42,459 nt of DNA from an uncultured Pleurocapsa sp. GTDB taxonomy: Bacteria; Cyanobacteriota; Cyanobacteriia; Cyanobacteriales; Xenococcaceae. The notes beneath the pieces are model-generated. The model was given only the letters and a program-made list of their open reading frames with translations. It ran no database searches and was not told the origin of the DNA. The stretch's first letter is position 1; every line of letters begins with the position of its first letter. The position numbers and the translations under genes are program-made. This document shows, piece after piece, positions 21,593 through 42,459 of the stretch. The stretch spans positions 1 through 42,459 of the forward strand of contig CALLPS010000261.1 in NCBI GenBank assembly GCA_938015355.1. Direction: 5' to 3'.

Positions 21593-22933
21593 ATGAAAAA
21601 TTCATTCTCGCGCAAAAAAAATCCTCGTCGCCGCAATCGCTTATTTAAATGGTTGTCTCCTGGATTATTTATTAAACGATGGTTACTCTTGAGTGCCGGT
21701 GGCTTCGTTTTAGCTGTGATTGGTACGGCGATTTGGAGCAAGCTTACGCCGATTTATCGTTTGTTATCATTCACCTCGGAATTTTTAGAGTTTTTAACTA
21801 CTGTTGTTCCTAACTATATTTCTGGCCCGGTTGTCTTAATTCTGGGGATCTTCCTCATTTATTGGGGGCAGTCCCGCACAGTGGGTTCGATCACTGATGT
21901 CTTGGGAGTGGACAAGAATAAGGGGTTAGTGGATATGCTGTTAGACCGTCGTCGTCTTAATCGCGGACCCAAGATTGTGGTGGTGGGGGGTGGTACGGGA
22001 CTGTCTACCTTATTGCGAGGTCTTAAAGAATATAGTAGCAATATTACGGCGATCGTCACCGTAGCCGATGATGGAGGGTCTTCTGGCAGACTTAGAAGAG
22101 AAATAGGAGTATTACCTCCAGGAGATATTCGCAATTGTCTAGCTGCTTTGGCAGATGAGGAAGAATTACTCACGGAACTATTTCAATATCGCTTTGAAGC
22201 AGGAGAGGGTTTAGTTGGTCATAGTTTTGGGAATCTTTTTCTCACAGTGATGAGCGAGATTACGGGAGATTTGGAACAAGCAGCAATGGCCAGCTCAAAA
22301 GTTTTGGCTATTAGTGGTAAAGTTCTGCCTTCAACCCTCAGTGACGTTAGTTTGTGGGCGGAAATGGAAGATGGCAGATTAATTGAAGGGGAATCTAATA
22401 TCCCTGAAGCCAGAGGACGAATTAAAAATATTGGCTGTATTCCTGCTGATCCTCCTGCACTTCCGAGCGCGGTCAAGGCAATTAACGAAGCAGAATATAT
22501 TATTATTGGCCCTGGTAGTCTCTACACCAGTATTATTCCTAATCTGTTGATTCCTGATATTAGAGATGCGATCGCTAATGCGGATGTTCCCCGCATTTAT
22601 GTCTGCAATATTATGACCCAGCCAGGAGAAACAGAAGGCTACAGTGTTGCCGACCATATTCGAGAAATAGATCGTGTGAGCAAGGGCAAATTATTTGATG
22701 CTGTCCTCGTGCATCGCAAACCTCCTAGTACTAAATCTTTAGAGCGTTATGAGTTGGAAAATTCTCATCCCGTTGATCTAGATCGTCAGGAAATTGCTAA
22801 GTTGAACCGCAGGATAGTTATGGCTAACGTTATGGAAGAAGATTTATTGAGGGGTCATGTCCGTCATAGTTCTACCCAGCTAGCCAGAGTCTTGCTGCGG
22901 TGGTACAGTGGCAAGTGGCAACCTAAAATATAA
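21593..22933 (+). CDS. YvcK/CofD-like (UPF0052) family protein
   Basis: [64 protein letters not shown]. Likely start MKNSFSRKK at 21593 (ORF extends to 21530). Confidence 0.9.
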
Positions 22934-39148: not shown

Positions 39149-39189
39149 AGACCGAGGACTAAAGACTCTAAATTAAACTAACAAACTAA

Positions 39190-39260
39190 GCGGGTGACGC
39201 GATTCGAACGCGCGACATTCACCTTGGCAAGGTGACGCTCTACCACTGAGCTACACCCGC
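39190..39260 (-). tRNA. trnG-GCC: tRNA-Gly (GCC anticodon)
   Basis: Reverse complement GCGGGTGTAGCTCAGTGGTAGAGCGTCACCTTGCCAAGGTGAATGTCGCGCGTTCGAATCGCGTCACCCGC folds as a cloverleaf (acceptor GCGGGTG/CACCCGC, T-loop GTTCGAATC, anticodon loop CTTGCCAAG). Confidence 0.95.
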
Positions 39261-39465
39261 ATTTCACCGAATTCCTTTTCTTCCTTATCTAGAAGGTGGA
39301 CTGGTGAGACACACAACCTTTCTGGGCTGTGCTATGTCCTTACCAAGGTTTATTATGCCAAATCTTTCAAAGTTTTGCAAGGAATTCCTTGGATCACTGA
39401 CAAATTACTTAGAATAAGCGGTCAGCATCGGATTGGAATCACAGCTACTTATTCTTCTCAAAGAT

Positions 39466-39498
39466 AAATTGGGGAGAAATTGGGGAGAAATCCCCAAT
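39466..39498. promoter_or_regulatory. Tandem 11-bp repeat overlapping a GAAA-loop hairpin upstream of the integrase
   Basis: AAATTGGGGAG x2 (39466-39476, 39477-39487) followed by AAATCCCCAATCTG; ATTGGGGA (39479-39486)-GAAA-TCCCCAAT (39491-39498) forms a perfect 8-bp stem. Confidence 0.6.
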
Positions 39499-39583
39499 CT
39501 GTAGAACCACCTATTAGCAAAGCTTTTAAACATTCTCCTTCTGTATAGCCCTATCTCAAGCTAAATATACTTAGGAGTTTTCA

Positions 39584-40753
39584 ATGTACTTAGATAACGA
39601 TAATTACAAAGGTAAAATCGGCAAAGTCAATATCAGTAGTAAAGATAATTCAATCAGGATTAGATTTACCCATCTATCAAAAAGATATGAGTTTACGGTG
39701 GCGACTAAAACTGAGGAAGGATTTGTTAAAGCTGTCCAGGTAGCTCAAAATATCCATCGTGATATTGAGATGGGAGAGTTTGATGAGACACTAGCAAAAT
39801 ACTCAGCCAAACATAAAAGGGCTTTAGAAGTTCAAACGAAGTCGCCAAGCTTACTTGACCTATGGAACTTTTATAAGCTCGTCAGCAAAGAGAGAGTAGC
39901 TGCAACTACTAAGAAAACTCATTGGTATCAATATGAGAATAATTACCTTGGGGATATCTTTAAAAAAGATCCTTCCTTACTTGAGTTAGAGAACAGCGAT
40001 AAGTTTATTGCCTACCTGCTGGAAAAATATAAACCCGCCACAATCAAGCCCATCTTCTCTAATTGCTTAATGCCATCGGTCAATCTTGCTGTTAAAAAGG
40101 GAACTATAGAACGCAATCCTTACATGGATGTGGAGCTACCAAAAGGGATAAAAAGCGAGATTGATTGTTATTCCTCTGAAGAAGTGAAAATGATTATTCA
40201 GAGATTTTATGATTCTGAGTCTGATTATTATGGGACTCTCATTGAATTTATTGCCTTAACTGGTTGCCGTCCTGAAAAAGCCATAGCCCTAACAGCTAAT
40301 GATGTTAAATCTAAAGGTGGTAGGAGTTATATCAGATTCAGTAAGGCATATAGTAATCGTGTTCTACTTCCACATACGAAGAACAGAGCAATTAGGTTGT
40401 TTCCCATCAACGAACAGCTTGAAGCTTTAATTGAATTAATTGAGCCAGCTAAAAATGGAGGTACAAAGGAAATCCCGAAAGGTTTATTCTTCCCTAGTCC
40501 TAAAGGAAAATACATTACCTGGAATAATGTAAGAAATCGCCACTGGATACCTATAATTAACAAGTTAAGAGAAGAGGGCAAATTAGATAGATATATTAAG
40601 CCCTATAGTTTACGTCATAGTGCTATTACAAGATGGCTGATGGAAGGTAAATTAGATATTGCCAGCGTAGCTAGATTGTCAGGTAATTCCACTAAAGTAA
40701 TTATGGACAACTACTGGAAAGCAAAGACAGGTTTTGATATACCCTTACTCTAA
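39584..40753 (+). CDS. Tyrosine recombinase / phage-type integrase
   Basis: FIALTGCRPEKAIALTANDV (Arg I), PYSLRHSAITRWLMEGKLDIASVARLSGNSTKVIMDNYWK (HxxR and Tyr box). Confidence 0.9.
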   Translation: MYLDNDNYKGKIGKVNISSKDNSIRIRFTHLSKRYEFTVATKTEEGFVKAVQVAQNIHRDIEMGEFDETLAKYSAKHKRALEVQTKSPSLLDLWNFYKLVSKERVAATTKKTHWYQYENNYLGDIFKKDPSLLELENSDKFIAYLLEKYKPATIKPIFSNCLMPSVNLAVKKGTIERNPYMDVELPKGIKSEIDCYSSEEVKMIIQRFYDSESDYYGTLIEFIALTGCRPEKAIALTANDVKSKGGRSYIRFSKAYSNRVLLPHTKNRAIRLFPINEQLEALIELIEPAKNGGTKEIPKGLFFPSPKGKYITWNNVRNRHWIPIINKLREEGKLDRYIKPYSLRHSAITRWLMEGKLDIASVARLSGNSTKVIMDNYWKAKTGFDIPLL

Positions 40754-40771
40754 TTACAGCAATCTAACTAA

Positions 40772-41278
40772 GTGAAAGATAAAAAAGTATATCAAGTTGA
40801 TACAGGAGGACTAAGGGGTGAATTACCTCTGACTGATTCTCAAAAAGCCAAAATATCAGAGTACATAAAATTAGTAGAATCAGGCGCACCATTTAAAGTA
40901 AGTGTGATTAGGTGGGTTGACGACCTAGAAATGAATATTGCTTATAACCCAGGATTTGATTTACTTAATATTGGTAGTGATGTAATGCCAGCAACTACAC
41001 TTAAAGAGAAAGGCACTCTTACAGCAAATAGTAGACTTACTTGGAAAAGCTCTATTGCACACGAATTAGTTGGGCATAGAGAAGCAGCATTGGCGAGTAA
41101 TACACAATTAGAAGATCCATTAGAGGAAGCTCAAGCTAGTATAAGGGCAGCTAGGTTTGCTCCCTCCCTTTCCTCTACTGAGAGATATACTTTACTTAGG
41201 GATGGTATTACTAGATTATACAAAGCTGGGATTAAAGTCCGTCAAGTTAAAAACATACTTCATATAACAAGTCGGTAG
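40772..41278 (+). CDS. Small HELVGH putative metallopeptidase-like / polymorphic-toxin-domain-like protein
   Basis: WKSSIAHELVGHREAALASNTQLEDPLEEAQASIRAARFAPSLSSTERYTLLRDGITRLYKAG; GTG start 18 nt after the integrase stop. Confidence 0.6.
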   Translation: MKDKKVYQVDTGGLRGELPLTDSQKAKISEYIKLVESGAPFKVSVIRWVDDLEMNIAYNPGFDLLNIGSDVMPATTLKEKGTLTANSRLTWKSSIAHELVGHREAALASNTQLEDPLEEAQASIRAARFAPSLSSTERYTLLRDGITRLYKAGIKVRQVKNILHITSR

Positions 41279-41284
41279 ATAGCA

Positions 41285-41590
41285 ATGAAAAACTTAAACT
41301 ACAAAATACAAGATTGGTTTGAACATCCTAACTTTGGAATAATTGTTAGTATTGCTAATCCTCAACTTGACAAGTTCTCTAAGGATGAAATTAAAGGTCT
41401 AGTTGGCGATTGTATAGCTATCTTAGATGCGGAAACTCAACAAAAGAAATGGATACAAGTATCTCAAGTTGAAGTTTCTACTTCGATTATTGATAAAAAG
41501 AATGTTCATATTTGCTTGGGTAATTCAATTAAGCTTTCAGATATTAAGCCCAATTCAGATATTGTCTTATCTAAAAAAATCTTAGTTTAG
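41285..41590 (+). CDS. Hypothetical protein, candidate partner of the HELVGH protein
   Basis: 101-aa ORF starting 6 nt after the stop of the upstream gene: MKNLNYKIQDWFEHPNFGIIVSIANPQLDKFSKDEIKGLVGDCIAILDAETQQKKWIQVSQVEV. Confidence 0.6.
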   Translation: MKNLNYKIQDWFEHPNFGIIVSIANPQLDKFSKDEIKGLVGDCIAILDAETQQKKWIQVSQVEVSTSIIDKKNVHICLGNSIKLSDIKPNSDIVLSKKILV

Positions 41591-41596
41591 AAAAAC

Positions 41597-41974
41597 CTAA
41601 GATAACTTATCTAATTGTTCGTTAACTGTTGCTATTTGCGACTCAACTTGTCTGAGTTGAGACTTAAGAGTGTCTTGTCTAGAATTAAGCTTGTCTCTTA
41701 AATTACATAGCCTAGTGCGAATAGATGAGATAGGGCGTTCTTGCCTGTTGTATAACTCCCTTTGTATCTGTGTCTCTTGAGTATCAGAAAACTCTACAAA
41801 ATCAGGAGATAAGTGATTGAGATTGTGATTGGGAATAGCGGGTAGACTCTCTACAGCAGGTCTTGAATTTTCCAATTCATAAGCATTCAACTCTTGTTCG
41901 GCTTCTAAGGTATGCACGTAAGGAGTAAAAGACCCTTCATTTTCCATTGCGGGATGTTGATGATAGTTATTCAT
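41597..41974 (-). CDS. Hypothetical coiled-coil protein
   Basis: C-terminal RTRLCNLRDKLNSRQDTLKSQLRQVESQIATVNEQLDKLS heptad-like; no recognised family. Confidence 0.6.
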   Translation of the reverse strand: MNNYHQHPAMENEGSFTPYVHTLEAEQELNAYELENSRPAVESLPAIPNHNLNHLSPDFVEFSDTQETQIQRELYNRQERPISSIRTRLCNLRDKLNSRQDTLKSQLRQVESQIATVNEQLDKLS

Positions 41975-42138
41975 TTATTTTCGTTACTAATTAATTCTAA
42001 AAGTTCTCTTCGGATCAAACCCGTAATAGTTAATCCCTTCCTATGACAATAATTACGTAGTCTGTCTTTGTCTTCTGTAGTTAGATAGGAAACTACTTGC
42101 TCGTATTCACGTTCTTTAGTTTTATATTTACTTGTCAT
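41971..42138 (-). CDS. Small ribbon-helix-helix-like protein (55 aa)
   Basis: MTSKYKTKEREYEQVVSYLTTEDKDRLRNYCHRKGLTITGLIRRELLELISNENK*; stop overlaps the next start (ATGA). Not in the ORF track. Confidence 0.6.
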   Translation of the reverse strand: MTSKYKTKEREYEQVVSYLTTEDKDRLRNYCHRKGLTITGLIRRELLELISNENK

Positions 42139-42253
42139 TTTCTATTGATTTGAAATTATAGATTATAAATCTTTTAAACTCTTCTTTTATAGAATTACTT
42201 AGTTTGGGATTACTTTCTATTTTTAATAATGTTTCATTTAATCGTTTATTCAT
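42128..42253 (-). CDS. Small hypothetical ORF (41 aa) upstream of the RHH-like gene
   Basis: MNKRLNETLLKIESNPKLSNSIKEEFKRFIIYNFKSIENDK*; 3' end overlaps the start of the 55-aa ORF. Confidence 0.4.
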   Translation of the reverse strand: MNKRLNETLLKIESNPKLSNSIKEEFKRFIIYNFKSIENDK

Positions 42254-42344
42254 TTTTTTAGCCTTCTCTATATAGTTCTATATAACCACCTGAAGGGGCG
42301 ACACAAGAGGGTTAAAAGCAAGTCAGGAGAGAGATTGAGTAAAG

Positions 42345-42369
42345 TAGTCTCCCAAAAAATGAGAGACTA
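42345..42369. repeat. Short inverted repeat upstream of the terminal ORF
   Basis: TAGTCTC (42345-42351) and GAGACTA (42363-42369), 11-nt loop. Confidence 0.45.
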
Positions 42370-42399
42370 TTATCAATAATCTTTTTTGTTGAAAACGTA

Positions 42400-42459
42400 A
42401 TGATTCAACTTCCTGAATTATATAGTAAACACCTCAAAAAACAATTTAGTTATTCTCAG
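42400..42459 (+). mobile_element. Start of a probable IS4-like transposase ORF, truncated by window end
   Basis: MIQLPELYSKHLKKQFSYSQ... is open to the window end and resembles N-termini of cyanobacterial IS4-type transposases (LPELYxKHLxxxLxxSQ). Confidence 0.45.

What the first reader, a model, noticed from the sequence alone, without database searches (positions are those of the whole stretch)
40772..41590. Candidate toxin/immunity-like pair directly behind the integrase
The 168-aa protein carries AHELVGHREAALA...LEEAQASIRAARFAP...LLRDGITRL. The HExxxH-type motif and the following LEEAQASIRA segment remind me of C-terminal domains in Rhs/polymorphic toxins. It begins 18 nt after the integrase stop, and an unrelated 101-aa acidic/amphipathic ORF follows 6 nt later, the layout expected of a toxin followed by immunity or antitoxin. 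No secretion or signal domain is present, so it may be a stand-alone effector or an addiction module.
Basis: inference. Interest (0 to 1): 0.62.

Follow-up and report, generated by a model that had tools for sequence, protein, structure and literature searches.

The report
Stand-alone phage-type protease toxin pair
Two small neighbouring genes on a cyanobacterial mobile element look like a toxin and its antidote; the toxin is a small metal-dependent protease whose relatives sit on the ends of phage head proteins as interchangeable weapons, and no family library searched here describes it.

Summary
ORF1 (40772-41278, GTG start, 168 aa) has no Pfam, NCBIfam, PHROG, PADLOC or PDB sequence match. 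In viral contigs the same domain is the C-terminal module of phage MuF/minor-capsid proteins: three PF06152 and two PF04233 fusions, plus two orphan cassettes. In a prophage related to Moraxella phages the MuF N-terminus is 64% identical to two phages whose C-termini are unrelated, the polymorphic-toxin signature. Each copy whose downstream sequence was inspected is followed by a 75-114 aa ORF. In cyanobacteria ORF1 stands alone, behind integrases or a MOBP relaxase (Stanieria conjugative plasmids), and intact copies are always followed by ORF2 or a relative. Where ORF1 is broken in two genomes, ORF2 stays intact. AlphaFold gives ORF1 a minimal zincin fold: HELVGH (HExxxH) on one helix, invariant E119 on the next; the nearest solved fold is MATCAP, another HExxxH protease. 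ORF2 is a small beta-barrel related to one phage partner. Best reading: an uncatalogued HExxxH metallopeptidase toxin domain with its immunity protein, used as an antitoxin-type module by mobile elements. Toxicity is untested. ORF2 is not acidic, and no Rhs link was found.

The parts
39189..39260 (-). tRNA-Gly(GCC), neighbour of the integrase; whether it is the attachment site is not shown
   Evidence: ARAGORN; no att-like repeat found in 39150-42459
39584..40753 (+). tyrosine recombinase (integrase), 389 aa, intact
   Evidence: PF00589 E 1.3e-9, phrog_1 E 2.1e-31
40772..41278 (+). predicted HExxxH zincin-like metallopeptidase toxin, stand-alone form, 168 aa; GTG start directly behind an in-frame TAA
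41060..41077 (+). codons 97-102, HELVGH: predicted metal ligands H97 and H102, catalytic base E98
   Evidence: H97, E98 and H102 invariant in 13 of 13 aligned homologues; one distant relative has canonical HExxH spacing
41126..41128 (+). codon 119, invariant Glu on the next helix: predicted third metal ligand
41285..41590 (+). predicted cognate immunity/antitoxin protein, 101 aa, small beta-barrel
41597..41974 (-). coiled-coil-like protein, 125 aa, convergent neighbour; not part of the pair
   Evidence: only weak coiled-coil hits; not found in the other pair loci
41971..42138 (-). 55-aa ribbon-helix-helix-like protein of mobile-element type; not part of the pair
   Evidence: DUF6290 E 0.007 and NikA-like E 0.05, both below cut-off

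Best explanation
ORF1 is a minimal zincin-type metallopeptidase toxin with the less usual HExxxH zinc motif, and ORF2 is its cognate immunity/antitoxin. In phages the same domain is carried as the exchangeable C-terminal tip of MuF/minor-capsid proteins, which are packaged in the head and thought to be delivered into the cell. In cyanobacteria the toxin-immunity cassette lacks a carrier and lives as a two-gene operon on mobile elements, behind an integrase or a relaxase. There it most likely acts as a stability or addiction module: ORF1 cleaves an unknown host protein unless ORF2 binds and blocks it. Shown here: homology to MuF C-termini, exchange of that C-terminus, conserved gene pair, purifying selection, partner kept where the toxin gene is broken. 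Predicted: zincin fold and metal site. Inferred: proteolysis, toxicity, neutralisation by binding, addiction role.
For: (1) The domain is C-terminal to PF06152 in L027/L028, L035 and L036 (E 5.8e-75 to 1.9e-50) and to PF04233 in L037 and L053 (E 3.4e-9, 3.4e-7). (2) The MuF N-terminus of L053 is 64% identical over 337 aa to Moraxella phages Mcat8 and Mcat5, with unrelated C-termini after it (a phosphoribosyltransferase-like domain in Mcat8, a short tail in Mcat5). (3) L029 carries an orphan cassette that contains a 213-nt copy, 96.7% identical, of part of the MuF-like gene upstream: a displaced toxin tip. (4) A 75-114 aa ORF follows each copy whose downstream sequence was inspected. (5) A model of the ORF2 family ranks the L053 phage partner first, above 4,000 shuffled sequences (E 0.009), so toxin and partner are both shared with a phage pair. 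(6) ORF1 is broken while ORF2 is intact in L004/L023 (nonsense codon) and L010 (remnant of ORF1, ORF2 81% identical). (7) Zincin topology, pLDDT 81; PDB fold matches led by MATCAP (HExxxH) and other zincins. (8) Orphan L052 sits next to YafQ/ParE-type toxin genes, and the Stanieria copy beside a RES-family gene.
Against: No toxicity data. No fold match passes E 0.001 (best 0.045 in PDB, 0.0076 in viral models). Most phage partner ORFs are not detectably related to ORF2. Some phage metallopeptidases are thought to process polypeptides rather than poison the host (PMC5512222). No delivery or secretion domain is present. The family is rare, so the stand-alone form could be cargo rather than a maintained addiction module.
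Confidence: 0.72

Rival explanations
1. ORF1 is a polyvalent-type processing or counter-defence protease of mobile elements, not a toxin. It would act on element-encoded or defence proteins early after entry, and ORF2 would be a regulator or substrate adaptor.
For: HEXXXH zincin domains are described in polyvalent proteins of phages and conjugative elements (PMC5512222); the Stanieria copies lie directly behind a MOBP relaxase.
Against: ORF1 stands alone and is not fused to other polyvalent domains. It is exchanged against unrelated C-termini on MuF, is followed by a small immunity-like ORF, and is lost before the partner.
Confidence: 0.15
2. The cyanobacterial pair is a decaying cargo cassette: a phage toxin tip and immunity gene picked up by mobile elements, kept only for immunity against phages that carry the same tip.
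For: Several broken copies (L004, L009-L012, L019, L021); two loci keep only the partner intact.
Against: ORF1 is intact in six genomes with dN/dS about 0.12-0.16 among close copies, even where the neighbouring integrase is broken (L003/L022). That implies selection on the toxin too.
Confidence: 0.1
3. ORF1 has the fold but another activity, for example metal-dependent chemistry on a non-protein substrate, or metal binding only.
For: Fold-search scores are modest and one PDB match is an HExxH oxygenase (8s5f).
Against: The other top matches are mostly peptidases, and the motif order (H-E-H on one helix, E on the next) is that of zincins; one relative carries the canonical HExxH.
Confidence: 0.08

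Closest known systems
MuF polymorphic toxins of temperate phages (Jamet et al. 2017, PMC5576092)
   Same: The ORF1 domain is the C-terminal tip of MuF1 (PF04233) and MuF2 (PF06152) proteins and is followed by a small ORF; 20% of the putative MuF toxins in that survey carry a metallopeptidase domain
   Different: In the window the domain has no MuF part, lies in a cyanobacterium, and the tip family matches none of the family libraries searched here
HEXXXH zincin-like metallopeptidases of polyvalent proteins (PMC5512222)
   Same: Same unusual motif spacing, same core topology (helix, three strands, two helices), same setting in phages and conjugative elements
   Different: ORF1 is solo with an adjacent partner gene; no match to the Pfam models; identity with the published clade not tested
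MATCAP/TMCP1, human HExxxH tubulin carboxypeptidase (PDB 7z5g; PMC10499314)
   Same: Best PDB fold match; HExxxH motif; third metal ligand in a following EE-containing motif (EEG there, EEA here)
   Different: About 17% identity, twice the size, eukaryotic; E 0.045 is not proof of common descent
Type II toxin-antitoxin modules on plasmids and integrative elements
   Same: Two adjacent small genes, intact toxin gene seen only with its partner, mobile-element setting
   Different: Toxin gene first, no DNA-binding domain recognised in ORF2, predicted protease rather than RNase or gyrase poison

Membership tests
MuF polymorphic toxin (tip domain) | Toxin domain found as C-terminal extension of a MuF/minor capsid protein | tested here: met
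   Homologues in L027/L028, L035, L036 (PF06152) and L037, L053 (PF04233):
MuF polymorphic toxin (tip domain) | Same N-terminus combined with different C-termini | tested here: met
   L053 against Mcat8 and Mcat5, 64% identity over 337 aa then unrelated
MuF polymorphic toxin (full protein) | MuF domain in the protein itself | tested here: not met
   The window ORF1 is the domain alone, no Pfam match; it is filed as a stand-alone relative, not as a MuF toxin
Polymorphic toxin-immunity pair | Small downstream ORF in conserved order | tested here: met
   Intact ORF1 copies and the inspected phage copies
Polymorphic toxin-immunity pair | Partner neutralises the toxin | not testable with these tools
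   Needs expression experiments
Zincin metallopeptidase | Core fold: helix, three-stranded sheet, helix with HExx(x)H, helix with third ligand | tested here: met
   AF2 model H22-37, E45-49, E57-59, E64-68, H91-107, H115-129, pLDDT 81; a prediction only
Zincin metallopeptidase | Significant structural or profile match to a known zincin family | tested here: inconclusive
   Top Foldseek matches are nearly all zincins, but E is 0.045 or worse in PDB and 0.0076 or worse in BFVD; no Pfam match
Zincin metallopeptidase | Metal-dependent proteolysis | not testable with these tools
   Needs purified protein
Rhs toxin tip | Domain at the C-terminus of an Rhs protein | tested here: inconclusive
   No Rhs fusion among the loci found; cellular genomes outside cyanobacteria were searched only once, with a close-relative query
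Type II toxin-antitoxin module | Antitoxin protein binds the toxin and represses the operon | not tested
   No DNA-binding domain recognised in ORF2; binding needs experiment

The most novel reading that the evidence does not exclude
A family of HExxxH metallopeptidase toxins that moves between phage-head delivered weapons and free-standing addiction modules of integrative elements and conjugative plasmids, with an immunity protein whose beta-barrel resembles domain II of EF-Tu/IF2. The antidote could therefore be a decoy of the target, with the toxin cutting a translation factor.
Probability: 0.12. Interest if true: 0.8.

Novelty: new variant of a known kind. Interest (0 to 1): 0.52.

Why it matters
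It adds a toxin domain absent from the family libraries searched here, with a clear predicted active site and four residues to mutate. It shows a toxin-immunity cassette shared between phage head proteins and mobile elements of cyanobacteria; one paper search found no report of a metalloprotease-type toxin-antitoxin pair in cyanobacteria. It also gives a testable role to 'hypothetical protein' pairs on Stanieria conjugative plasmids.

Tried and rejected
Library searches of both ORFs gave nothing above cut-off. tblastn of the domain against the phage collection gave no match; the fusions came only from IMG/VR contigs. The Sinorhizobium plasmid hit (E 0.1) and the photolyase-like hit L048 were dismissed as chance. 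The Pfam matches NCBP3 and UPF1_1B are below cut-off and were rejected. hhalign of ORF2 against two phage partners (A5) failed; only the L053 partner links to ORF2 by profile. Pairwise tests of the other phage partners were at noise level, apart from one isolated pair (L007/L037). An attachment site from the tRNA-Gly was sought and not found. Promoter and terminator scans gave no more than shuffles. The Stanieria relaxase has no match in the window's own incomplete genome. ORF2 had no relative in viral contigs by a close-relative scan.

Full report
What is in the window. The window is the whole of contig C261 (42,459 bases) of an 81%-complete cyanobacterial genome; the nearest named relatives are Xenococcaceae and Stanieria. 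The contig ends 869 bases after ORF2, so the far end of the element is missing. An intact tyrosine recombinase (39584-40753) is followed after 18 nt by ORF1 (40772-41278, 168 aa) and after a further 6 nt by ORF2 (41285-41590, 101 aa). ORF1 begins with GTG right after an in-frame TAA; the copies in L003 and in the Stanieria plasmid also begin with GTG, while ORF2 begins with ATG in the window and L003. Neither protein has a match above cut-off in Pfam, NCBIfam, PHROGs, PADLOC or PDB sequences. ORF2 is not acidic.

Conservation in cyanobacteria. ORF1 has full-length relatives at 84% (L003/L022), 77% (L004/L023, with a nonsense codon), 70 and 69% (Stanieria plasmids NC_019765 and AP017376), and about 45-51% (L007, L008). 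Every intact copy is followed by ORF2 or a relative of it; the L007 and L008 partners are linked to ORF2 by alignment, profile and shuffling tests. The upstream gene differs: an integrase or its remains in the window, L022, L023 and L011, a MOBP relaxase with its MobA-like accessory in Stanieria, and an ABC transporter gene in L007. dN/dS is 0.12-0.16 among the closer ORF1 copies and about 0.14-0.45 for ORF2. In L004/L023 ORF1 carries a nonsense codon and in L010 only a remnant is left, and in both ORF2 is intact. Loss of a toxin before its antidote is the expected order; I found no intact ORF1 without a partner.

Relatives in phages. Scans of viral contigs with ORF1-family alignments found the domain at the C-terminus of phage head proteins. 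L027/L028, L035 and L036 are PF06152 (minor capsid protein 2, MuF2) fusions and L037 and L053 are PF04233 (MuF1) fusions. L053 comes from a prophage related to Moraxella phages. Its MuF part is 64% identical over 337 residues to the coat proteins of Mcat8 and Mcat5, and then the three sequences part completely: the ORF1 domain in L053, a phosphoribosyltransferase-like domain in Mcat8, a short tail in Mcat5. In L029 the domain sits in an orphan reading frame whose start lies in a 213-nt, 96.7% identical copy of part of the MuF-like gene upstream, which itself ends in a different sequence. L052 is a second orphan, next to YafQ- and ParE-type toxin genes. These are the marks of a polymorphic-toxin tip. 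The copies whose downstream sequence was inspected are followed, usually with overlap or a few bases between, by an ORF of 75-90 aa. Jamet et al. found such a small ORF behind 89.4% of MuF toxin genes but 25.5% of short MuF genes (PMC5576092). Most of these phage partners are not recognisably related to ORF2, as is common for immunity genes, but the L053 partner is: it ranks first, E 0.009, above 4,000 shuffled sequences.

Fold and active site. AlphaFold2 on 13 sequences gives ORF1 pLDDT 81 and pTM 0.78: a helix, three strands, the helix with HELVGH (residues 97-102), then a helix with the invariant E119. This is the zincin core described for polyvalent metallopeptidases, of which one set has HEXXXH in place of HEXXH (PMC5512222). 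The best PDB matches are MATCAP, whose motif is HExxxH with a third ligand in an EEG motif (PMC10499314), then an HExxH domain and the small metallopeptidases jannalysin, selecase and abylysin; the viral models matched include M48, lethal-factor, IrrE and SprT-like proteins. Each score is weak on its own; the agreement is what counts. A distant relative (L026) has the canonical HExxH at the same place. ORF2 is a confident small beta-barrel (pLDDT 89), most like domains of translation GTPases such as EF-Tu and IF2/eIF5B (TM about 0.55, best E 0.012). That may reflect a common barrel and no more, but it suggests a target to test.

How it most likely works. ORF1 is a protease toxin, ORF2 its inhibitor. 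In phages the tip is carried by a head protein and, as proposed for MuF toxins, delivered with the DNA. In the cyanobacterial elements there is no carrier and no secretion signal, so the toxin would act in the cell that makes it, and the pair would stabilise the element. The conserved GTG start of ORF1 against ATG of ORF2 would favour excess antidote (inference). A counter-defence role alongside the relaxase, and a passive cargo role, remain possible.

Novelty. MuF toxins, metallopeptidase tips and HEXXXH zincins of mobile elements are known kinds. This domain family, its partner, and its free-standing form on cyanobacterial integrative elements and conjugative plasmids matched none of the libraries, and one paper search for a metalloprotease toxin-antitoxin pair in cyanobacteria found none. 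Whether it coincides with a clade in the supplementary alignments of PMC5512222 could not be checked here. I class it as a new variant of a known kind.

Noticed in passing
L029:1282-5707: A phage contig with a MuF-like protein ending in a different HExxH-bearing sequence (HEVWH) and, downstream, a displaced orphan tip with a duplicated linker: a likely recent tip exchange.
   Followed up: partly
L052:888-3423: ParE/YafQ-type toxin genes lie directly upstream of the orphan metallopeptidase cassette, just before what looks like a phage capsid gene.
   Followed up: partly
window 41597-42138 (-): A 55-aa ribbon-helix-helix-like gene and a 125-aa coiled-coil gene run convergent to the pair and point to a longer mobile element cut by the contig end; GC of 39160-42459 is 35.5% against 39.0% for 1-39148.
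   Followed up: no
L011:543-1686: An integrase reading frame runs straight into the middle of an ORF1 remnant (VQLVGHREAALAGKTQ...), an apparent deletion fusion of integrase and toxin.
   Followed up: no
L024:12826-13317 and 22124-22423: On the Stanieria plasmid the pair is followed by a RES-family NAD+ phosphorylase gene and, further on, a HigA-type antitoxin gene: a stability region rich in toxin-antitoxin-type genes.
   Followed up: no
L026:1486-2168: A distant stand-alone relative with HExxH (HELSH) in another cyanobacterial family, followed by an unrelated 76-aa cysteine-containing ORF.
   Followed up: no
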